Below, piece by piece: positions 5,136-30,175 of a stretch of DNA of 30,175 bases. The stretch is from a virus: the IMG/VR virus record IMGVR_UViG_3300005838_000043, positions 1-30,175 of that record, one strand, 5' to 3'. A program made the position numbers and the translations under genes. Position 1 is the stretch's first letter. Every line of letters begins with the position of its first letter. The notes under the pieces are model-generated. The model did not search any database, had not been told where the DNA came from, and worked only from the letters and a program-made list of their open reading frames with translations.

Positions 5136-5461
5136 AGTGTGTTAGATGTAATCTAAGAAATACTTCATCAAATAAAGACATGTGTAACATGTGTTATCTA
5201 AATATATTAGATAATAAACCTAAAAATAAAGTTGATGATGTAGAGATATTAGAATATCATATTCACAAGGCTCTTTGGGATGGTTGCAACGATTGTGGTT
5301 GTAATGATTTTTATTGTGATGCAGGTATAAAAGAAGAAAAAGAAGTTAAATGGTACATATTAAAAGTTCGATGTCCCAATTGTAATAGTAATTATGAACA
5401 AATAATGGAAGTAAGAATAAATGAGTTTAATAAAAATAAGCAAAGAACACATGAGCAGTAA
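5132..5461 (+). CDS. Double zinc-ribbon protein, 109 aa
   Basis: The N-terminal CVRCNLRN...CNMC forms one possible zinc site. CNDCGCNDFYC followed by VRCPNCNSNYEQ, reminiscent of a ribbon that closes with an aromatic-rich strand, forms a second. Function unknown. The start overlaps the upstream stop as ATGA, and the end overlaps the next gene by 11 bases. Confidence 0.6.
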   Translation: MKCVRCNLRNTSSNKDMCNMCYLNILDNKPKNKVDDVEILEYHIHKALWDGCNDCGCNDFYCDAGIKEEKEVKWYILKVRCPNCNSNYEQIMEVRINEFNKNKQRTHEQ

Positions 5462-6272
5462 GCCACTAATAGTTTTAGGCAATACTGCTATGGATAAAAT
5501 GAAAAGAGCAAGAAGTTTTGTTTCTGATAGTCCAATAGTAATGTATGCCAATGAGTTTAATATTGTAGACAATTATAGTATTCCTAAAGATAGAGGAATT
5601 ATAATAGATGAGATGCACTTTAAACCAAATAATGATTTAATTAAAAAAACTATATTAGAATATGCAGGACAAGTAGTATTGATTTCTGATAGTAAAAAAG
5701 CAGTGTTGCCTACAATATATAATTTATGTGATATGAAAAGACCAACGGAAAAAATAGATGTGAAAAACATTTCACCAAGAGCAGATGAACCTGTTAATTA
5801 TGAAGTAGATATGTTCACTTTAGCAAGAGAATATTTAACTAATAGAGATAGAGATGAAGTTGCATTAAAACTTAAGATAAATACACCAGCAGATAATCAA
5901 TTATTATCTTGGATTGTTCCTAATATAAACCCTAACAAAATAGCGTTTATAGATAATAATGTTAAAAGACGCTGGAACAGTTCATATTTTTATGAGTTAT
6001 TAGCATATTCTCATAATGGTAAACTAAGTGCTAAGATGGTTATGCCTACCAGAAGGAAATATTCTAAGTTAGGTAGTATCGCTAGTAGATTAGGATTAAG
6101 AAGGCATGAAACTTATTTGATTCAAGACCTTCTTAAAAATGAAGAATTTAAAAAATATGCTATGACTAAGTTAAATAATTCAGAATGTAGATTATTAAAA
6201 CTTGGTGAAAAGAAAGTTAGAAAAATAGATAATATTGTTTTACCTACTCCAACATTAGACAAGTGGTTATAA
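5451..6272 (+). CDS. Putative degenerate clamp-loader large subunit (RFC-L-like)
   Basis: The 273-residue protein has an AAA-like layout without a normal Walker A: after a first strand PLIVLGNTAMDKMKRA comes a strand and acidic motif GIIIDEMHF in the Walker B position, then QVVLISDSKKAVLPTIYNLC resembling a sensor 1 strand. A helical C-terminal half ends TPTLDKWL at the last residue, a PIP-like tail as in archaeal RFC large subunits. It lies one small gene before RFC small subunit. I infer the non-ATPase large subunit of the viral clamp loader; homology is not certain. The start at 5451 overlaps the previous gene by 11 bases; ATG 5421 is an alternative. Confidence 0.45.
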   Translation: MSSKPLIVLGNTAMDKMKRARSFVSDSPIVMYANEFNIVDNYSIPKDRGIIIDEMHFKPNNDLIKKTILEYAGQVVLISDSKKAVLPTIYNLCDMKRPTEKIDVKNISPRADEPVNYEVDMFTLAREYLTNRDRDEVALKLKINTPADNQLLSWIVPNINPNKIAFIDNNVKRRWNSSYFYELLAYSHNGKLSAKMVMPTRRKYSKLGSIASRLGLRRHETYLIQDLLKNEEFKKYAMTKLNNSECRLLKLGEKKVRKIDNIVLPTPTLDKWL

Positions 6273-11177: not shown

Positions 11178-12848
11178 ATGATAATCAATGAAATAAAAAA
11201 TGGAATAGGATTAAGGTGGAGAGAGAACGGTGAAGTTAAAGAAAAAATTGTTACTCTCAAAGAATTTCCGCATTACTTTTTTATTAAGGCTACATCTACT
11301 AGACATACTGATTTATTAATTAAAGATAACAATACTAGAGGGAAGTTTAAGATTGAGTTAAATTATGAAATGGGTGAATGGAAATCTCTTAATGGTGATT
11401 TATTAGTTAAAGTAACTTGGGGAACTAAATCTCCTAATATAAAATATCAAATTAGAGAACAATTAGAAGAATTAGGTGTTGATACTTATGAAGCAGACAT
11501 TCCACATCATTATCGTTATACTGTTGATTGTATTGATAAGATACCCGAATATAAAATGCGTAAGTGTTTTTGGGATATGGAATGGCAAATAGGTGGTGAA
11601 CATGATGGTAAGATTACATGTATAGTTGCTTATGATAACTACGATAGTAAGTACAATACTTTTGTTTGGTTTCCTACTGGAACAGTGTTAGCACATATTA
11701 AGAATGTTAATATATTTACATCAGAAGAAGATATGTTAAATGCATTCTTAGAATATATTGTTAATAAAAGACCCGACATGTTAATTTCTTGGTTCGGATG
11801 GAAGTTCGACTTACCTAAATTAATAGAAAGGAATACTGTTTATAATATTGATTCTAGATTACTGTCGCCATATAATGAAGTTAGAGGTGTTTCTTGGAGT
11901 GAAGATAAAGTTAAAATCTATCCTAAACATATACATGATTCTTCACCTGTGTCGCAACCAATAAAAGGTTTAATTACAGTAGCATTAGATTTAGTATTTG
12001 AAAGACAATGGAACGATGCACAACGAGGAACATTACCTTCTATGGCTTTGGATTATATTTCTGAAACTGTTTTAGGAGATAATAAATTAGTTAGTGAAAA
12101 GTTTCCTGATAAAATTGAGTTCTTTAGAAGGGCATGGTTAGAAGATACTGAAACATATTTAGAATATGCTTTGAAAGATGTAGAACTTATTAAAAGGATT
12201 GATGAAGAAAACCATTGTATTGATTCAGTATTAGCACTACAAAAATTACTAATCGCACCCTTTGATGCTTGCTTCTATGCAAGTAATATGGGTGGAATAT
12301 ATTTCATGCGTAATGCTTCTTGGAAAGCACCGACAGGTAAGAAAGGAGAACGTGTTAATTATGAAGGGGCTATGATATACAATCCTTTGACTGAAGGCAC
12401 AAATGGACTTCATCATAATGTAGCGGCATTTGATTTTGCTTCTCTTTATCCATCAATGATAATTTCACGGAATATTTCTTGGGAATCTAAATCTGCAACT
12501 CCTACTGAGTTCGCAGTTAACTTAGCAATACCTAGAGATTTTAGTGAAGTTAAAGAAGAGAAAATGCTTTACTACAAGACCAATGAATTAGGTTTGTTAC
12601 CTAAATCTTTAATTGAACTTAAAGCATTAAGAAACGAATACAAAAAGAATATGAAAGAAGCATCAACCAAAGATGGTAAGATTAAATGGAACAATAATCA
12701 AATGGCTGTAAAAAGGCTGATGGCATCTTTCTATGGGATAACGGCGTATCAAGGGTTTGGTTGGGCTGATATAGACTTAGCCGCTAGTATTACTGCTAGT
12801 GCTAGAGAAGCAATTAGAGCCGCAGCATTTAAGGTGAGAGAATTATGA
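11178..12848 (+). CDS. polB: Family B DNA polymerase, N-terminal part (exonuclease and palm up to motif B)
   Basis: The 556 residues hold the N-terminal domain, the 3'-5' exonuclease and most of palm and fingers. Exo I is FWDMEW (D133, E135), Exo II is GWKFDLP (D211) without the usual Asn, and Exo III is Y330-ALK-D334. Motif A is DFASLYPSMI (D419) and motif B is K512-RLMASFYG. The protein ends just after the palm helix ITASAREAIRAAAF, so motif C is missing here and is supplied by the gene at 13234. A two-part enzyme is expected, as known for Methanothermobacter PolB. It starts 2 bases after the Cys-rich gene. Confidence 0.93.
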   Translation: MIINEIKNGIGLRWRENGEVKEKIVTLKEFPHYFFIKATSTRHTDLLIKDNNTRGKFKIELNYEMGEWKSLNGDLLVKVTWGTKSPNIKYQIREQLEELGVDTYEADIPHHYRYTVDCIDKIPEYKMRKCFWDMEWQIGGEHDGKITCIVAYDNYDSKYNTFVWFPTGTVLAHIKNVNIFTSEEDMLNAFLEYIVNKRPDMLISWFGWKFDLPKLIERNTVYNIDSRLLSPYNEVRGVSWSEDKVKIYPKHIHDSSPVSQPIKGLITVALDLVFERQWNDAQRGTLPSMALDYISETVLGDNKLVSEKFPDKIEFFRRAWLEDTETYLEYALKDVELIKRIDEENHCIDSVLALQKLLIAPFDACFYASNMGGIYFMRNASWKAPTGKKGERVNYEGAMIYNPLTEGTNGLHHNVAAFDFASLYPSMIISRNISWESKSATPTEFAVNLAIPRDFSEVKEEKMLYYKTNELGLLPKSLIELKALRNEYKKNMKEASTKDGKIKWNNNQMAVKRLMASFYGITAYQGFGWADIDLAASITASAREAIRAAAFKVREL

Positions 12849-12860
12849 TGAGGAATATAA

Positions 12861-12950
12861 ATGAAATGTAGAAAAAATAAATGTAATAATTTAATATTAC
12901 CAAACCATAAGTTATGTTTTTATCATATTTTTTGGGGGGATGAAGAATGA
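12861..12950 (+). CDS. 29-aa zinc-finger micro-protein between polymerase halves
   Basis: A 30-codon frame whose product has C-x4-C near the start and LCFYH near the end (CRKNKC ... CFYH), a plausible C-C-C-H zinc site. Its TGA overlaps the next ATG (ATGA), and a purine run GGGGGGATGAAG serves the following gene. It lies in the 98-base gap after the first polymerase gene. Function unknown. Confidence 0.45.
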   Translation: MKCRKNKCNNLILPNHKLCFYHIFWGDEE

Positions 12951-13237
12951 GTAAGATAGAAGATGAAGTATGTGAGAAAATTCAGAATAGAGCAGAACAA
13001 GCAAGGGTGGAAAAACCCTGTCCTAAATGTGGTCATGCTAATTTAAAATATAACAATAAGACTATGGAACGAAATGACTTATCTAATGAAGAGTGGTTAA
13101 TTCATGCACAAGAAGAGGCTATGGATTTAGCGGTGTATTTACAGAAGTTAATCACTACACAAATACCTTCTAACTCAACACAAGAACTTGAATCAATAAG
13201 AAAAGAATATATTAAATCAAAGAGGGATTTCAAATGA
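12947..13237 (+). CDS. Zinc-knuckle and MazG-like helical protein, 96 aa
   Basis: CPKCGHANLKY is one zinc knuckle. The second half, EEWLIHAQEEAMDLAVYLQKLI, has the E-E...D helix pattern of all-alpha NTP pyrophosphohydrolases (MazG-like) often found in phages, though only one such helix is clear. The ATG follows GGGGGGATGAAGA and overlaps the previous stop. Its end overlaps the second polymerase gene as ATGA, so the three are cotranslated. A nucleotide-pool or polymerase-associated role is possible. Confidence 0.5.
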   Translation: MSKIEDEVCEKIQNRAEQARVEKPCPKCGHANLKYNNKTMERNDLSNEEWLIHAQEEAMDLAVYLQKLITTQIPSNSTQELESIRKEYIKSKRDFK

Positions 13238-14160
13238 AAGTAGTTTACGGACACACTGATTCTATTTATGTTAAATGTGATGATATAGTAAAAGCAAAAG
13301 AAGTTTGTAATGAGGTTAACGATTATGTAAGAACTTTCTTTCCTAATATATTAGGATTAGAAGAACATCCTGTAACCTTAGAGTTTGAAAAGTATTACAA
13401 ATCATTAGGAGTAGGTGCTACCAAAAATAGAAATGCTGGATTAATAACTTGGAAAGACGGAGAATATCTTGAAGAAGATGAATTTGTCCTTACTGGTTTT
13501 TCTGCTAAGAGAGTTGCACAAACTAAATTAGCAAAAGAAACACAATTAAAGATTCTTAAAATGTGGGTTGATGGTGATAGTGAAGAAGTAATTACAGATT
13601 ATTTACATGAACTATTCGTTAATGTGCTTAGTGGTAATATAGAATTATCAATGTTAATTAACAGAAGCAGATACAAAGAAGAGAGATTTAAAGTTAGATG
13701 TATGGGAGAATGTAAGAAAATGAAATGGGGAAAAATACTTACATTATCAGAAATTATTAAGAATATTGTAAAACATAGAACTAATTTTTCAAGTGATGAT
13801 TGGAAGTGTTGTAATAGTCCTAACTTAAGAACAACCCAAAATAAAAGACCTGTAATTGGTTCAGGTATTGAAGGGGTTTTGTATTATAATTCTATTAATA
13901 CAATTCCTATTGATGATTCATATTTATACATGAAAATTAAAGATGTTAATGATACTTATATTCATCCCTTAACCCAAAAAGACACTGTGCCTTCTTGGGT
14001 TGCAGGTAAACAAGAAAAAGAATTACTTGAATTTACTCCTGATTATTTGCATTATGCCTATCAAGTTGTTAGTAAAGCAGAACCTATTTACAAAGCAATG
14101 GAATGGGATGTAAATAATATTATAAGAAGTAGGCATCAAGATTTGGAGGATTGGTTTTGA
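13234..14160 (+). CDS. polB: Family B DNA polymerase, C-terminal part (motif C and thumb)
   Basis: The 308-residue product begins five residues before motif C, VVYGHTDSIYV, where most PolB enzymes have YGDTDS. The second Asp (D9) of the catalytic pair remains and the first is His (H7). The rest matches the palm end and thumb, including GFSAKRVAQTKLAKETQ and SGIEGVLYYN, the latter a PolB C-terminal signature region. A Cys-bearing insert (RCMGECKKMKW ... WKCCNSP) lies in the thumb. The last residues QDLEDWF resemble a degenerate PIP tail. It starts by ATGA overlap and should assemble with the product at 11178. Confidence 0.9.
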   Translation: MKVVYGHTDSIYVKCDDIVKAKEVCNEVNDYVRTFFPNILGLEEHPVTLEFEKYYKSLGVGATKNRNAGLITWKDGEYLEEDEFVLTGFSAKRVAQTKLAKETQLKILKMWVDGDSEEVITDYLHELFVNVLSGNIELSMLINRSRYKEERFKVRCMGECKKMKWGKILTLSEIIKNIVKHRTNFSSDDWKCCNSPNLRTTQNKRPVIGSGIEGVLYYNSINTIPIDDSYLYMKIKDVNDTYIHPLTQKDTVPSWVAGKQEKELLEFTPDYLHYAYQVVSKAEPIYKAMEWDVNNIIRSRHQDLEDWF

Positions 14161-22317: not shown

Positions 22318-25300
22318 TCAACCTACCTGAATCCAATTGTTTGCAGTAACACAAACAAACGATGCTAACTCATGGTCTGCTATTGCTGTTGTTGCATTTG
22401 TTGCACTAGTAAACCCTGCTATCATAGCACAATTAGTAGCATTAACTGCAACAGTAGCAGAAGCACCTGTATTATTAATTACAGTATATTGAGTTCCTAC
22501 TGTTCCACTTGCAGGTAGTGTTAATGTTCCACTAGTCCAATAAGCGTAAGAACCTGTTTGCGCTAATGTTAATGTTGTATTACCTGCTACTGCTACTACT
22601 ACTGCTTGAGAATTAATACCACCTACTGAATTACCTGTAATCCAAACAGGACTACCATCACCGGAACTTATTGATAATTGGTCATTACCTGTTGCACTTG
22701 CTACATCTGCCGCACCAATTACAACATTGTTATCGCCCGTAGTGATGTTATCTCCGGCATAACTACCAATCAAGATGTTACTATGCGCCCCATTAGCAAG
22801 AGCCGAACCCGAATAAAATCCTATTGTCGTATTTTTCTCACCGTAAGTCATAACGGAGGAGGACATTCTTCCAATAGCAGTATTCGCATAACTGTTGCCT
22901 GTTAATAGTCTCAAGGCATTCTGTCCTATTGCTACATTTTCTCCGTAAATCAAGGTCGCAGTAAGAGCATCATGTCCTATTGCTACATTGGAGTGACCTT
23001 CGGTAATCCCACCACCCGCATTATACCCAAGTGCTACATTTTGGTCGCCGGAAGTCAAAACATCAAGAGCATAATTTCCAATCGCTATGTTCTTCTCTCC
23101 ACCAGCAACAGCACCGCCGAGAGCATCGTAACCTATTGCTATGTTGTCTGATTCGGTATCTGCTCCATTGTATGCGCCTGTTCCTATGCCGATATTTCTT
23201 AACCCGCTTGTGTTTGCATACAACGCCAAATCACCAATTGCGATATTATCGTTTCCTGTTGTATCTTTCATCGCGGATTTTCCAAGTGCGATATTTCGTT
23301 GACCCGTAGTAAGTGATTCTAATGTGCCTGACCCAATCCCAATGTTGTTTGTTCCACTTGATAGTCTTCTTAATGATTGAAGCCCTATTCCTAAATTGTA
23401 AGAACCCGTCACAGCATTCATTGAGGCGGTTTGTGCGCCTATCATCACATTGTAAGTTCCTGATGAAATTGCTTTTCCGGCCTGATAACCGATTCCAATG
23501 TTAGAGAATCCTGCTTCTAAATCCGCTAATGCCTCTTTACCAACACCAACAGACCATGATGAGTTAAATGAAACATCATCCATAGCACCTGAACCAAGAG
23601 CCAAACTACCGAGCGTATTATTGAAAACAGCATCAGATAAACCATCAATAGCAGTAGCACCACCACTTGAAACAGTAGCCCAAGTGTTATCGCCTCTAAG
23701 ATAAGTTGAACTTGATGCAGTTCCGGTTGCTGAAAGCATAGCAATATCAACCGCATCTGTCGCTATTGTTGTAGCATTCCCAACACTTGTTACATCACCT
23801 GTTAAGTTTGCATTAGTAGTATGTGTGTAGTTGTTGTAACCATACGATAGAATCTTATCTTGTATTGCAGCAGAAGTCATTAAAGAAGTATCGTTATCTG
23901 CAAATGATTCAGATGATATTTGTAAACTACCTGCTGCTAATTCAGATACAGTTAAACCACCTACATTCAATGTAGGATTAACTGTACTTGTTCCAGTTTG
24001 AGTCATTCCTGTTCCGGCTGTAACTGATGTAACAGTTCCACTTCCACCACCTAAAGTAACCCATGCTCCATCACCTCTCAAGAACTTAGAAATATCTGCT
24101 GTACCTGCAAATGGTACTAATCCACCTGCTAAATCAGTAGCATTAGTAGCATCAGCACCTTCAAACTGTTTAATTTCTAATGTTTTTGAACCACCTAATG
24201 TAATTTGTTTTTCGTGTTCAGTTTTAAAGGTTGTATTTATATTATGACCGGTAGCAGTTGTTCCCTTGTGTCCTCTAATTAATCCTGTTAAATTTCTCAG
24301 TTGTTTACCTGTGTATTTTATTTTTTCACTACCAATATCAATAACACCTGAAGATGGGAAAGTATCTGCCTGTGCTTGAGATGCACAAATTATAGTGGTA
24401 ACAGAAGAACTGATTTCTACTCCTAATGAACCTGCACCTATTTGAGTATTAGCAACAGCAAACCCACTAACTTTAGCACCTGTAACTGCATCATCAGCAA
24501 TCTTTGCTTCTATTACTGCATCAGCAAGTATTTGACCTGAATCAATTGAATTATCAGCCATCTTAGCATTAGTAATTTGGTCAGTTCCAATTTTTTGAGT
24601 AGTAATTGCACCACTTGCAATCTTTGATTCTACAATTGCACTACTTGCAATTCTTGCTATTGGTAGTGTTCCTGTTGTTAATTTATCCGCATCTATTCCA
24701 CTAAGAAGTTTAGTATTAGAAATTGAACCTGCTAATTGAGCATTAGTAATTGTGCCTGTTAAACTAGTAGTAGGTAATGCTGTTGCATTTGTTAATACTA
24801 AAGCAGAAGGTGTTCCTAATGCGGGTGTAGTAAGAGTAGGACTTGTTAATGTCTTAAGTGTTAATGTCTGTTCAGTATCTAACTGAACAATGTTGCTATT
24901 TGTAATGCTAGAAATCTTAGTAGCAGTTGCGGCATTTCCTGTTGTTGAAGCAGAAGAACCTGTTATACTACCTGCGATAGCAGATGAAAAAGTTTTAGTT
25001 CCCGCAATAGTTTGATTACCACTTGTTACTACAATGTCGCTGTTTGTTATAGAAGCAATCTTTGTGGCCGTATCAGCATTACCTGTTACATCACCTGTTA
25101 CATCACCTGTTACATCACCTGTTAAATCACCTGTTAATGCTCCTGTAAAGGTTGCCGCCTTCATATTTGCATAAGAAGCAATAGTTACATTTCCAGCAGT
25201 AGTCCCTGTATCTAATGTATTAATTGCTGCCCATGTATCTGCGGATTCATCCCAAATGATACCAACATTAGTTGATGAACCTCTTTCACCTATTAATCCT

Positions 25301-28300
25301 ATATCAACAGATGGTGTTCCTGATTGTCCATTAGCCATGTATATTAATGGGTCTTCAACACTTAGCGTTGCAGTATTAACTGTAACTGTATCTCCACTAA
25401 CAGTTAAATTACCAGCAATAGTTACATCATCAGGTAATCCAATTGTTATTGTTCCACTACTTTCTGCTACTGTAACTTCATCAGAAGTTCCAGCAAATGT
25501 AATTGTTCCACCCAAAGAAGTAGCAGTAGTATTAGTGCCGTCTGAAACCGTTATTGCAGAATTACTTAGTTTAGCATTAGCAATTGAACCTGCTAAATGC
25601 TCATTATCAATACTTCCATCTACATAATGAACACTATCTATACCATCTTCTAAGAGGGTTTTTATTTCAGTAGCAGTTTGGTCTGCCGTAGCACCGCTTT
25701 CAGGATTGGTTGACCAACTAAATAATGTTGCTATTTCAGCAGCAGTTTGGTCATCAGTAGCAGCAGCATCTCCTGTATAACCTAATTGTGCTAAAGTCAT
25801 TGTTCTCTTAGTCATGGCTGTAATATGACCTGTGCTGTTAGTAGTTAATGTATCAATGACTTCTGCATTAGCAGTATCTATATTTGTAGTAGCATAACTT
25901 GGGTGACTATAAACTGTATCTGTATAAACTCCACCTATAGCAGTTTGCATTTCTGCTTGAGTAATACCAGACTTAAGAGTAGGTGTTCCTGATGCATCAT
26001 ATATTGCTGCATTACCACTATCACCACTAACATTGGCTTCTGCACCAACAGGCGCGTGTGATGCTTGAGAATGAGTATAGGCTGTATCATAATTAGTTTT
26101 GAGGGCATTAGTAAGATTGTTTTGAGTAAGCCCACCATCACCTACTGAATAGGTAGTATTGGTATCAGTAGAAGCAATAGTAACCGCACCAGCAGATTCA
26201 GTAATAGTAACATTAGAACCTGCTGTAAATGCTAAAGTCTCAGAAGAACTTAATGTGTTGCCTCCTGCTGTTATTCCTCTCCATGTGTTTGTGTCGGTTG
26301 TAATATATCCACTATCATTAGTCCATTGAGATATATTACCTCCTTTGTTAGTAAAGGTTTGTGAGTTGCTTGCAGTAGTAGTTCCAGTATTAGTAGTATA
26401 ACCAAAGCCTGTGACGAATGTATGTATTTGGTCTGCTGTTGCTAAACCCGTTCCACTATCTGCTATTGCGGCTGTGCTTAAGACCGCACCCGTTCCTAAT
26501 CCCAAGTTAGACCTTGCAGTTGAAGCACTTGCTAAATCTGATAAATTACTTGCTTTTGCTAATTTCAGCCCTATGGTTGTAGCAGTAGTAGTAGCGAAGT
26601 TTGGGTCATCCCCCAAAGCATCTCCTAATTCAGCAAGAGTGTTAAGTAAAGTTGGTGCGCCAGTTGTTAGTGCTGTTATCGCAGAAGCATTTGTCGCTAC
26701 TTCAGTATCTACATAAGCCTTAATTGATTGTTGAGAAGCAGCAGCAGTAGCACTATTGGTAGCCATGTTATCTTCATCTAACAGCGTTAATTGTGTATTT
26801 GTGTCTGTGTAATTAGAAGAGTGAATAGTGCCTGCGCTTGCCCCTGTCCAATCAATATGTTCATTAGCAACAAAGCCGGTTAAATCATCATGAGTAAAAT
26901 CAGAAGATGAATATGTAGTATTAGTGTCTGTAGAAGCAATAGTAACCGCACCAGCAGATTCAGTAATAGTTACATTAGAACCGGCTGTAAAGGCTAATGT
27001 TTCTGAAGCAGATAATGTGTTACCACCAGCAGTTACACCTCTCCATGTATTTGTATCAGTATATGATGTGATAAAGCCAGCACCATTGGTTAATTGATTA
27101 TTATTAGTAGGTATAGTTGTTGAAGTAAATGCGTTTGCACCAAACTCATAAGTTCGATTTGTTGTGCCATTAACTGAAAATGTAAGAGTATTAGATGATT
27201 TAGTAATACCATCAAGATAATAATTAGAAGCACCTGCTGTAACTTCAGCATCAACATATGCTTTAACCGATTCAGCAGATGCAACATTAGATGATGAAGC
27301 ACCCGACATTGTATCGCTATCTATTAGAGTTAATTGTGTATTAGTATCTGTTGAAACAAAATCTATCGTTCCATCTCCGTCTTGATAGGTAACTGCAATG
27401 TTTGTTTCTGTATTGCCTGTAAGCATTCCACCTACAATATCTTGAACTTCTTCAGTAGATAATTGGGTGTTCGTATATGATGTAATATACCCACTATTAT
27501 TAGTCCATTGAGATATGTTTCCACCTTTATTAGTGAATGTTTGTGAATTGCTTGCAGTAGTAGTTCCGGTATTAGTTGTATAACCTAAGCCTGTAACAAA
27601 TGTATGAATTTGGTCAGCCGTTGCTAATCCAGCCCCGCCATTTGCTATTGCTGCGGTGCTTAATACTGCACCTGTTCCTAATCCTAAGTTTGTTCTTGCT
27701 GTTCCAGCATTAGCCAAATCTGAAAGGTTACTTGCCTTTGCAAGTTTAGTGCCTATACTTGTAGCAATAGTCGTTGAGAAAGAAGCGTCATCACCTAAAG
27801 CCGCCGCTAATTCATTCAAAGTATTTAGAGCCGCAGGTGATGAATCAATAAGACCGGTTACTTCAGCATCAACATAAGCCTTAACTGACTGTTGACTTGC
27901 AACAGATGTAGCACTATTAGAACTCATATCATCTTGGTCTAATAGTGTTAGTTGAGTATTAGTATCTGTAAATACCGCACCTGAAGGAACGGCAGTAGCA
28001 ACTGTTAAACCATTTACTGTATTTGCATTAATAGTCATTGCATTAATTTGACTAGCAGTTAATTGTGTATTAGTGTCTGTTGAAGCAATAGTTACATCAC
28101 CAGCACTTTCAGTAATAGTAACATTTGAACCAGCAACAAAATCTAAGTTTTCAGAAAGAGTCCCAAGAGTATTTCCACCAGCAGTAATTGTTCTCCATGT
28201 ATTTGTATCTGTATTTGTATCTGTAGATGCAATAGTAATTGTATCAGTACCAGCCGCAGTTGTAAGTGTTACATTAGAACCTGCAACAAAAGTTAGAGTA

Positions 28301-30175
28301 TCTGCTGTAGTATCTGCTACTACATTGTCTTGTCCGCTTACTGAAATGGTCTTAAATGAATATTCATTGGTTTCACCACTAGCAGCAGATAAAGCATATC
28401 TTCCATCTAAATCAATAGTTTGATTTGTTGCACCATTTACAGATGCAGTTAATATTCCTGTTCCTGTAGCAAATGTTAATCCATCAACATAAAAATTTTG
28501 ATTTGCTTCGTGAGTTTGACCATCAACATATGCTTTAATAGATTGTTGAGATGCTAATTTAGTTGCACTATTAGAAGCCATGTTATCTTCATCAAGAATA
28601 GCACTTCCACTAATGCCTGTGTTTAATACAGGACTAGTTAGTGTTTTATTTGTTAATGTTTCTGCACCTGTTAATGTTACATCTCCTGTGCTTGCAGTTG
28701 CATTAGAAGCAACTGTTCCTAACTTAGTTTTCTCATCAGTAGTATAAGAAGCAGTAACTAATTCCCAATCACCTGTTCCCGTAGCAGAAGCAGAATACAC
28801 TTTGTTATCATCTGTATCTACCCAAATATCACCTACTGATAATGCAGTAGGAGGAGCAGATTGTCTGAATACTTGATTCTTTGTTGCTCCATCTTCAAAT
28901 TCTAAAGGTATTGTTGCTGAGTTTCCGTTTGTTAAACTTAATGTTTTAGTATTGCCACTAACTGCCTTTGCTAATGTAACGTTTGAGTTTAATAATGTAG
29001 AAACAGCAGTAAGACCAGTACCACCTCTAGTGGCTGATAATGTTCCACTAGTTATTTTAGTTGCGGCTAAATTGGGTATGTCTGATGCAACTATTTCTCC
29101 TATTATTGTTGAAGCACTTTTATTTTCAACACTACCTATTCCTAAAGAAGATAAAGTAATGTTTGAGTTTAACATTGTAGAAATAGAATTTAATCCTGTT
29201 CCACCTTCCGAAGCAGGTAAAACATAATTACCCGATAAACCCCATGTTGGTAAACGATAATATGTTCCACTACCATCAGTCCACTTCCATATATCAGTAG
29301 CACCTGTATCATCAAAAACAAATTGAGCATTTGGAGAGGTTCCTCTATCAATCTCTATACCTGAGGCACTAGAAGCGGCATCACCTGTCTGACCTTTATT
29401 TAGTAATATAATGTTATCTTCTATTTGTAAGTTAGTAGTATCAATTGCAGTTGTAGTTCCACTAACAGTTAGATTACCTGCTACTGTTAAGTTATTAATT
29501 CCTGATATATTCTTACTAGCATCTAAAATAACTGCTTTACCTCCTAATGCTGTTCCGGCAGTTATACCATCTACTAGATTTAATTCAGCCGCAGTAGAAG
29601 TAATAGCAGTGCCGCCAATAGATAATTTACCTGTTGGAACATCAAAAGTAGCATTATCTTTTATTCTTGCTACTTCTGTTCCGTCATATTGTTGGAAAAT
29701 TAATTCTCCACCATCTTGTTTAGTTTTGAAAATTGCTGTTGTGCCAGTGCCTGTTCCACCAACATCTATGTTTAAATATTCATCTGTGTTATTTTTAAAT
29801 GTAACACCACTAATGCCACCTATATCAATATCTAAACTACCACTTTCTATCTTAGTTAATGTTAATGTATTAGGTATATCTGCATCTGCTAGACCATTTG
29901 CTAGTATATTTATTTCAGCCGCAGTTGCAGTAACCGCCGCAAGTTTTGTTAGGTCTGCGGCTGTAAGGTCGTCATTGTCTAAATAATTAATTTCCGAAGC
30001 AGTTGCAGTAATACTCAAATCACTCAAATTACTAACAGAACCATCGCCTGTACCTGCACCAATAAGCGTGAGGATTTCTCCGGCAGTTACACCACTCGCA
30101 AGAGCAGGTGTTCCACTATTATTAATTATAGCAGGGTGAGCAGTATTAGTAGCACCATCAGCATAATTACCTAAA
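22318..30175 (-). CDS. Giant repetitive fibre/adhesin-like virion protein (N-terminus outside window)
   Basis: The frame stays open from the right edge of the window to the stop near 22318, so at least 2,618 residues belong to one chain that begins beyond the window; a TTG at 30027 is only an internal codon. It is rich in T, S, A, N, G. It holds TATAAEIN / STAAELNLVDG modules, repeated DTNTWR-ITAGGNTL and NVTITESAG-VTIAST units, and near the C-terminus (about 22700-23520) many NIAIG-x-x-AL units like the YadA head. Such proteins form trimeric receptor-binding fibres of tailed marine phages. Repeats suggest length variation. Confidence 0.85.
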   Translation of the reverse strand, partial: LGNYADGATNTAHPAIINNSGTPALASGVTAGEILTLIGAGTGDGSVSNLSDLSITATASEINYLDNDDLTAADLTKLAAVTATAAEINILANGLADADIPNTLTLTKIESGSLDIDIGGISGVTFKNNTDEYLNIDVGGTGTGTTAIFKTKQDGGELIFQQYDGTEVARIKDNATFDVPTGKLSIGGTAITSTAAELNLVDGITAGTALGGKAVILDASKNISGINNLTVAGNLTVSGTTTAIDTTNLQIEDNIILLNKGQTGDAASSASGIEIDRGTSPNAQFVFDDTGATDIWKWTDGSGTYYRLPTWGLSGNYVLPASEGGTGLNSISTMLNSNITLSSLGIGSVENKSASTIIGEIVASDIPNLAATKITSGTLSATRGGTGLTAVSTLLNSNVTLAKAVSGNTKTLSLTNGNSATIPLEFEDGATKNQVFRQSAPPTALSVGDIWVDTDDNKVYSASATGTGDWELVTASYTTDEKTKLGTVASNATASTGDVTLTGAETLTNKTLTSPVLNTGISGSAILDEDNMASNSATKLASQQSIKAYVDGQTHEANQNFYVDGLTFATGTGILTASVNGATNQTIDLDGRYALSAASGETNEYSFKTISVSGQDNVVADTTADTLTFVAGSNVTLTTAAGTDTITIASTDTNTDTNTWRTITAGGNTLGTLSENLDFVAGSNVTITESAGDVTIASTDTNTQLTASQINAMTINANTVNGLTVATAVPSGAVFTDTNTQLTLLDQDDMSSNSATSVASQQSVKAYVDAEVTGLIDSSPAALNTLNELAAALGDDASFSTTIATSIGTKLAKASNLSDLANAGTARTNLGLGTGAVLSTAAIANGGAGLATADQIHTFVTGLGYTTNTGTTTASNSQTFTNKGGNISQWTNNSGYITSYTNTQLSTEEVQDIVGGMLTGNTETNIAVTYQDGDGTIDFVSTDTNTQLTLIDSDTMSGASSSNVASAESVKAYVDAEVTAGASNYYLDGITKSSNTLTFSVNGTTNRTYEFGANAFTSTTIPTNNNQLTNGAGFITSYTDTNTWRGVTAGGNTLSASETLAFTAGSNVTITESAGAVTIASTDTNTTYSSSDFTHDDLTGFVANEHIDWTGASAGTIHSSNYTDTNTQLTLLDEDNMATNSATAAASQQSIKAYVDTEVATNASAITALTTGAPTLLNTLAELGDALGDDPNFATTTATTIGLKLAKASNLSDLASASTARSNLGLGTGAVLSTAAIADSGTGLATADQIHTFVTGFGYTTNTGTTTASNSQTFTNKGGNISQWTNDSGYITTDTNTWRGITAGGNTLSSSETLAFTAGSNVTITESAGAVTIASTDTNTTYSVGDGGLTQNNLTNALKTNYDTAYTHSQASHAPVGAEANVSGDSGNAAIYDASGTPTLKSGITQAEMQTAIGGVYTDTVYSHPSYATTNIDTANAEVIDTLTTNSTGHITAMTKRTMTLAQLGYTGDAAATDDQTAAEIATLFSWSTNPESGATADQTATEIKTLLEDGIDSVHYVDGSIDNEHLAGSIANAKLSNSAITVSDGTNTTATSLGGTITFAGTSDEVTVAESSGTITIGLPDDVTIAGNLTVSGDTVTVNTATLSVEDPLIYMANGQSGTPSVDIGLIGERGSSTNVGIIWDESADTWAAINTLDTGTTAGNVTIASYANMKAATFTGALTGDLTGDVTGDVTGDVTGNADTATKIASITNSDIVVTSGNQTIAGTKTFSSAIAGSITGSSASTTGNAATATKISSITNSNIVQLDTEQTLTLKTLTSPTLTTPALGTPSALVLTNATALPTTSLTGTITNAQLAGSISNTKLLSGIDADKLTTGTLPIARIASSAIVESKIASGAITTQKIGTDQITNAKMADNSIDSGQILADAVIEAKIADDAVTGAKVSGFAVANTQIGAGSLGVEISSSVTTIICASQAQADTFPSSGVIDIGSEKIKYTGKQLRNLTGLIRGHKGTTATGHNINTTFKTEHEKQITLGGSKTLEIKQFEGADATNATDLAGGLVPFAGTADISKFLRGDGAWVTLGGGSGTVTSVTAGTGMTQTGTSTVNPTLNVGGLTVSELAAGSLQISSESFADNDTSLMTSAAIQDKILSYGYNNYTHTTNANLTGDVTSVGNATTIATDAVDIAMLSATGTASSSTYLRGDNTWATVSSGGATAIDGLSDAVFNNTLGSLALGSGAMDDVSFNSSWSVGVGKEALADLEAGFSNIGIGYQAGKAISSGTYNVMIGAQTASMNAVTGSYNLGIGLQSLRRLSSGTNNIGIGSGTLESLTTGQRNIALGKSAMKDTTGNDNIAIGDLALYANTSGLRNIGIGTGAYNGADTESDNIAIGYDALGGAVAGGEKNIAIGNYALDVLTSGDQNVALGYNAGGGITEGHSNVAIGHDALTATLIYGENVAIGQNALRLLTGNSYANTAIGRMSSSVMTYGEKNTTIGFYSGSALANGAHSNILIGSYAGDNITTGDNNVVIGAADVASATGNDQLSISSGDGSPVWITGNSVGGINSQAVVVAVAGNTTLTLAQTGSYAYWTSGTLTLPASGTVGTQYTVINNTGASATVAVNATNCAMIAGFTSATNATTAIADHELASFVCVTANNWIQVG
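22700..23520 (-). repeat. YadA-head-like repeat array in the fibre gene
   Basis: About fifteen or more degenerate units of roughly 14 residues with the core N-[IV]-[AG]-[IL]-G (NIAIGDLALYANTSG, NIGIGTGAYNG, NVALGYNAGGG, NVAIGHDAL) are encoded here. Units of this kind stack as a left-handed beta roll in trimeric autotransporter heads and phage fibres. The array is the last large module before the C-terminal tip domain. Confidence 0.75.
25081..25140 (-). repeat. 12-base tandem repeat in the fibre gene
   Basis: Three perfect copies of ACCTGTTACATC followed by two altered copies encode repeated G-D-V-T (TGDVTGDVTGDVTGN) in the fibre. The unit is a multiple of three, so slippage changes length without breaking the frame. 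Confidence 0.85.
26150..26795 (-). repeat. Fibre long repeat, copy B
   Basis: This stretch encodes the module running from LLDEDNMATNS through SNLSDLAS, GLGTGAVLSTAAI, ATADQIHTFVTG, TNTGTTTASNSQTFTNKGG to SGYITTDTNTWR. It is a close match to the module at 27470-27958, indicating duplication inside the gene. Confidence 0.75.
27470..27958 (-). repeat. Fibre long repeat, copy A
   Basis: Encodes the module LLDQDDMSSNS ... SNLSDLAN ... GLGTGAVLSTAAI ... ATADQIHTFVTG ... SQTFTNKGG ... NNSGYITSYTNTQL, near-identical in protein to copy B at 26150-26795. Third-position differences between the copies show the duplication is not recent. Confidence 0.75.

What the first reader, a model, noticed from the sequence alone, without database searches (positions are those of the whole stretch)
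11178..14160. Family B DNA polymerase split between motifs B and C, with two small zinc-type genes in the seam
The first gene ends just after the palm helix that follows motif B. The second begins five residues before motif C. No domain is lost: the cut falls at a natural turn. Between them sit a 29-aa C-C-C-H protein and a 96-aa zinc/MazG-like protein, all linked by ATGA overlaps. A two-gene PolB is known in Methanothermobacter; a seam occupied by small cotranslated genes could be a separate feature, possibly bridging subunits.
Basis: partly seen in the sequence, partly recalled or inferred. Interest (0 to 1): 0.8.

Follow-up and report, generated by a model that had tools for sequence, protein, structure and literature searches.

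The report
Split viral DNA polymerase carrying swappable cargo
A group of uncultured marine viruses, probably of archaea, encodes its DNA-copying enzyme as two separate genes cut at one fixed point, and different viruses keep different small genes in the gap, so the two genes found here are interchangeable passengers and not a bridge that holds the enzyme together.

Summary
In detail: a family B polymerase is split into 11178-12848 (556 aa) and 13234-14160 (308 aa), with a 29-aa and a 96-aa ORF between. Only two of the three junctions are ATGA overlaps. It is not an assembly error: 150 distinct IMG/VR loci are split at the same residue (…KVREL* | MKVVYGHTDS). Forty loci of a sister clade have an intact gene (…QELGYxVIYGHTDS), and trees of both halves need a single split. 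A model of an intact sister puts the cut in a 3-residue turn between a palm helix and the motif C strand. The two small genes do not bridge the subunits: the seam is a hypervariable slot (-4 to 2088 nt, median about 600; roughly 98 families, none in more than 41% of loci; seven seams empty), while neighbouring junctions are short. Close relatives gain and lose single genes cleanly. Ribosome-binding sites within the end of each upstream gene probably let any cassette join the relay. Split PolB is known (Methanobacteriales, Nanoarchaeum, T4-like 43A/43B, a 'PolB-NTD/CTD' label in Aoguangviridae), and phage Ac42 also has small genes in its seam. New here: the fixed one-event split, the shuffled cargo, the translation relay, and a later ribbon-like insert in the C half.

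The parts
11178..12848 (+). PolB N half: N-terminal domain, 3'-5' exonuclease, palm part with motif A (DFASLYPS), fingers, motif B (KRLMASFYG) and the following palm helix
   Evidence: (phrog_262 E 9.7e-66, profile 16-560 of 856)
12831..12848 (+). last codons of the N half (AAG GTG AGA GAA TTA TGA), containing AGGTGA, an anti-SD-complementary stretch for the next cistron
   Evidence: 97% of first seam genes have a >=4-nt SD match upstream against 26-28% in controls; none at the homologous site of intact sisters
12861..12950 (+). cassette gene 1, 29 aa, C-x4-C-x10-C-x2-H mini zinc protein (seam family 34)
   Evidence: weak similarity to seam family 31 (37% over 27 aa, E 1e-4); PHROG 36350 E 0.0013
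12947..13237 (+). cassette gene 2, 96 aa, one CPKCGH motif plus a W-x2-H-x2-EE-x2-D helix (seam family 27); its 3' end carries AGAGGGAT, an SD-like stretch for the C half
   Evidence: homologs outside the seam; dN/dS 0.09 against L005, few substitutions
13234..14160 (+). PolB C half: motif C (YGHTDS), rest of palm and thumb, with a cysteine-rich ribbon-like insert
13696..13830 (+). approximate extent of the ribbon-like insert in the C half (CMGEC ... CC); absent in intact sisters and in the deep split lineage L358/L361
   Evidence: 108 of 132 C halves have two cysteine pairs there

Best explanation
The two genes encode the two chains of one active family B replicative polymerase. The N chain (exonuclease, motifs A and B) and the C chain (motif C, rest of palm, thumb) reassemble by non-covalent complementation in the palm. 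The split arose once, in the ancestor of one clade of magrovirus-like viruses, from an intact gene that a sister clade still has. The new intercistronic point then became a slot for small accessory genes. Each cassette starts at the upstream stop and ends with a ribosome-binding site and an ATGA for the next gene, so cassettes can be gained, lost or swapped without harming polymerase expression. The 29-aa and 96-aa genes here are two such cassettes. Shown: the split, its fixed position, single origin, purifying selection on both halves, intact sisters, variable cargo, SD/ATGA relay in sequence. Inferred: assembly and activity of the two chains, and homologous recombination in the conserved polB flanks as the way cargo is exchanged.
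For: Same junction in 150 distinct loci. Intact polB in 40 sister loci, all LGYxVIYGHTDS-like, with similar neighbours (ATPase, putative clamp, polB, PD-(D/E)XK nuclease). One change split/intact in trees of the N half (138 rows, 98*) and of both halves (43 rows, 100*). Model of intact L258 (pLDDT 86.5): helix 517-540, turn 541-543, strand 544-549, the cut falling in the turn; nearest solved folds are archaeal PolBs, TM about 0.76. The C half modelled alone: palm part pLDDT about 50-78, thumb mostly above 80, whereas the palm part is 84-97 in the intact model. Motif A found in 145 and motif B in 130 of 150 by simple patterns, the rest truncated or variant. dN/dS 0.05-0.21 for both halves. Seam median 607 nt, -4 to 2088, against medians of 4, 13 and 13 nt at three neighbouring junctions; on one tree 65 changes of length class against 10, 21 and 30. 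528 seam ORFs fill 98% of seam DNA, about 98 families, commonest in 61/150; at least 96 changes of arrangement on the tree. Single-gene gain/loss among 96-98% identical N halves: L039 none, L040 [15], L008 [13], L088 [13,15], L015 [62], with clean junctions. SD match >=4 nt upstream of 95% of C-half starts and 97% of first cargo genes against 26-28% of controls, none in sisters. Precedent: phage 25 43A/43B co-purify and are active (PMC2988022).
Against: No expression, interaction or activity data. The halves were not modelled as a complex. The first Asp of motif C is His here; intact sisters share this, so it is not a consequence of the split. The conserved thumb KxRY tyrosine is replaced (KNRN) in the split clade. 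The exchange mechanism was not demonstrated.
Confidence: 0.83

Rival explanations
1. The small seam proteins are structural subunits that bridge or chaperone the two polymerase halves.
For: They are tightly coupled in translation to the C half, and zinc-type mini-proteins occur in 70 of 150 seams.
Against: Seven empty seams; no family in more than 41% of loci; complete exchange among near-identical polymerases; the 29-aa family seen only in the window's virus and its closest relative.
Confidence: 0.05
2. Homing endonucleases or an intein made the split and drive the seam: a nuclease gene broke polB and later decayed, leaving cargo.
For: Nuclease-like genes stand first in five seams: HNH family 35 (L029, L133, L186), an HNH-like family-64 gene in L028 (by reading, no Pfam support) and GIY-YIG/T5orf172 in L128. 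The intact sister L279 has an HNH-like gene (by reading) directly after polB. Split phage genes are linked to such nucleases (PMC2988022), and erratic intein excision has been proposed for Methanobacteriales (PMC4104785).
Against: Only 5 of 150 seams have such a gene; no intein remnant at either edge by reading; no Rfam intron in ten loci or the window; the cut lies at a turn several residues before the usual motif C intein site (recalled, not tested).
Confidence: 0.3
3. The split polymerase is degenerating or inactive and the host or another enzyme copies the genome.
For: Motif C has lost its first Asp (YGHTDS), and KxRY has become KNRN.
Against: Strong purifying selection on both halves, conserved motifs A and B and the second motif C Asp, kept across a deep clade within a replisome operon; intact sisters have the same YGHTDS.
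Confidence: 0.04
4. Assembly or frameshift artefact.
For: None found.
Against: 150 distinct loci from many metagenomes with the same junction, and different cargo in each lineage.
Confidence: 0.005

Closest known systems
Aoguangviridae / Magrovirales exemplar YSH_150918 (ICTV profile PMC10768690)
   Same: Figure legend lists 'PolB-NTD/CTD', so a two-gene PolB is already annotated in this virus order; replication and morphogenesis modules in opposite directions, as in the window.
   Different: The text held says nothing of the seam, its position, its cargo or its variability; the record (ON649702) was not available here.
T4-like split gene 43 (43A/43B) of Aeromonas phages 44RR2.8t and 25 and Acinetobacter phage Ac42
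   Same: PolB in two cistrons; in Ac42 seven small genes lie between 43A and 43B; for phage 25 the two proteins co-purify and are active (PMC2988022).
   Different: Cut in the fingers, upstream of motif B; independent origin, since this clade's sisters and the halovirus HVTV-1 have an intact gene.
Methanobacteriales split PolB3 (Kelman et al. 1999, cited in PMC4104785)
   Same: Two-chain PolB encoded by two genes.
   Different: Cellular PolB3; proposed origin by intein excision (PMC4104785). Its cut position was not compared here.
Nanoarchaeum equitans split PolB
   Same: PolB encoded in two pieces.
   Different: Non-adjacent genes, proposed to be joined by a split intein (PMC4104785); no intein sequence was noticed here.

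Membership tests
Family B DNA polymerase | PolB domain with motifs A, B and C in order across the two chains | tested here: met
   motif C is YGHTDS, keeping the second Asp
Family B DNA polymerase | PolB fold | tested here: met
   intact sister model, TM 0.76-0.78 to KOD/Tgo PolB
Family B DNA polymerase | polymerase activity | not testable with these tools
   needs purified halves
Split PolB as in T4-like 43A/43B | two cistrons of one PolB | tested here: met
Split PolB as in T4-like 43A/43B | same cut position (fingers, before motif B) | tested here: not met
   cut here is after motif B and just before motif C
Intein-split (trans-spliced) PolB | intein fragments at the inner ends of the halves | tested here: not met
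   by reading, halves end KVREL* and start MKVVYGHTDS, matching intact sisters to within about one residue
Group I intron interruption | intron RNA in the seam | tested here: not met
   no Rfam match in ten loci or the window; seams are 98% coding
Homing-endonuclease-mediated split | endonuclease gene in the break | tested here: inconclusive
   five of 150 seams
Magrovirales | archaeal-type replisome with PolB, clamp loader, ligase and an opposed structural module | tested here: inconclusive
   RFC-type AAA ATPase, ligase, ERCC4 nuclease and PD-(D/E)XK nuclease confirmed; clamp and primase have no Pfam hit; no capsid or terminase gene examined

The most novel reading that the evidence does not exclude
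The split is kept because it pays: dividing the most conserved replication gene creates a protected insertion site between two essential, recombination-prone halves, where cassettes carrying their own ribosome-binding site and ATGA are exchanged between viruses and expressed together with the replicase, a cargo bay for host-takeover or counter-defence genes.
Probability: 0.25. Interest if true: 0.8.

Novelty: new variant of a known kind. Interest (0 to 1): 0.6.

Why it matters
It gives a one-event case of a replicative polymerase becoming two chains, with intact sisters for direct comparison and a clear structural cut point, so that two-chain assembly and the benefit of splitting can be tested. 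The seam is a natural inventory of about 98 small viral gene families from an abundant uncultured virus group, possibly rich in host-interaction factors, and the terminal codons that double as ribosome-binding sites suggest how genes can be inserted into an operon without loss of downstream expression.

Tried and rejected
Annotated records of the ICTV exemplars ON649702 and OR863078: not held. Philosof 2017, Zhou 2023 and Prabhu 2025: not held. Clustering seam proteins with phmmer --max timed out; BLASTP was used. The genome-contig scan gave only a contig in a Maricaulis MAG, probably a misbinned virus. Search for intact forms with the YGHTDSIY pattern gave none; they were found through a profile led by HVTV-1. 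Rfam searches for introns: nothing. MazG identity of the 96-aa protein: no support.

Full report
Observation. The four ORFs are present at the stated places. Pfam DNA_pol_B covers profile positions 36-195 in the first and 222-370 in the last, so the pieces are consecutive. The N half stops at 12848 and the 29-aa ORF starts at 12861, so that junction has a 12-nt gap; the other two are ATGA overlaps. The window is a 30-kb IMG/VR virus record with an RFC-type AAA ATPase, DNA ligase, ERCC4-type and PD-(D/E)XK nucleases. Its clamp and primase genes are named here by resemblance only, since Pfam gives no hit.

Relatives. Scans of IMG/VR with both halves and with a motif C pattern gave 150 distinct loci holding both halves (the window's own virus is among them). 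Nearly all end the N half in KVREL or a variant and start the C half MKVVYGHTDS. A profile led by the halovirus HVTV-1 found a sister group at 40-44% identity whose polB is one uninterrupted gene, FKSQELGYSVIYGHTDSIF. Two more scans gave 40 intact loci (some from the same contigs) and no intact gene inside the split clade. Trees of the N half (138 rows) and of each half (43 rows) place intact and split on two sides of one branch with support 98-100. The intact sister L279 keeps similar neighbours: ATPase, putative clamp, polB, then the PD-(D/E)XK nuclease. So the split most simply happened once, is fixed, and is not an assembly error.

Where the cut is. The model of intact L258 (mean pLDDT 86.5) matches archaeal PolBs (TM about 0.76). 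The cut lies in its residues 541-543, a turn between helix 517-540 and strand 544-549, which carries motif C. The C half modelled alone has a poorly defined palm part and a well-defined thumb, as expected if the palm is completed by the N half; this is suggestive only. Both halves are under purifying selection (dN/dS 0.05-0.21). The split clade carries a cysteine-rich ribbon-like insert in the C half (108 of 132 sequences), absent in the intact sisters and in the split pair L358/L361 that branches first in the C-half tree; it was therefore probably gained after the split.

The seam. Its length runs from -4 to 2088 nt, median about 600, with 114 distinct values in 150 loci; three neighbouring junctions have medians of 4, 13 and 13 nt. 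In 95 loci with all four junctions, changes of length class on one tree number 65 against 10, 21 and 30. A simple tiling gives 528 ORFs in 98 families, covering 98% of the seam; the commonest family is in 61 loci, 40 families are singletons and seven seams are empty. Family counts depend on the BLASTP threshold. Twenty-six of 30 testable families have a median dN/dS below 0.5. At least 96 changes of arrangement are needed on the tree. Among N halves 96-98% identical, seams hold none (L039), family 15 (L040), family 13 (L008), both (L088) or family 62 (L015), joined without scars. The window has families 34 and 27; its closest relative L005 has 13, 34, 27. Fifteen families, including the 96-aa one, have relatives elsewhere in the loci.

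Translation relay. The last codons of the N half contain a stretch complementary to the archaeal 16S 3' end: at least four matching bases upstream of 97% of first seam genes, and of 95% of C-half starts, against 26-28% of control sites; the four intact sisters examined have none at the homologous site. Each cassette thus tends to end in a ribosome-binding site for the next gene. This would make insertion or loss of a cassette harmless to the C half. The anti-SD sequence used is the general archaeal one, not read from the host.

Mechanism and rivals. Best supported is a two-chain PolB assembled without splicing, with a cassette slot between its genes. The bridge idea fails on empty seams and on turnover. 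An origin through a homing endonuclease remains possible: nuclease-like genes stand first in five seams and an HNH-like gene follows the intact polB of L279. Homologous exchange through the conserved flanks is inferred.

Known or new. Split PolB is known, including in this virus order (PMC10768690 lists 'PolB-NTD/CTD'), and T4-like 43A/43B is the nearest case: the Ac42 seam has seven small genes, and the phage 25 halves co-purify and are active (PMC2988022). That cut lies before motif B. I found no account of the shuffled seam in the papers held; several key papers on these viruses were not available, so it may have been noticed.

Noticed in passing
window 13696-13830 and L358, L361: C halves of the split clade carry a CxxC...CC ribbon-like insert that intact sisters and the deep-branching L358/L361 lack.
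   Followed up: partly
L106 seam (locus about 5410-5754): A 114-aa seam ORF matches Pfam Viral_Rep (E 4.4e-17), a Rep domain of CRESS-DNA viruses, inside a tailed-virus polymerase seam.
   Followed up: partly
L279 3762-4802: An ORF resembling IMP dehydrogenase/GMP reductase (by reading) lies directly upstream of the intact polB in a sister virus.
   Followed up: no
L311 (NZMJ01000151.1): A contig of this virus group is binned in a Maricaulis (bacterial) MAG, probably a binning error.
   Followed up: no
window 13401-14000 against L005: The N half is 97% identical to L005 but the C half only 86%, with a nucleotide dip to 74.5% at 13601-13800: a possible recombination patch.
   Followed up: partly
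window 22318-30027 (- strand): A 2569-aa repetitive tail-fibre-like ORF on the opposite strand.
   Followed up: no
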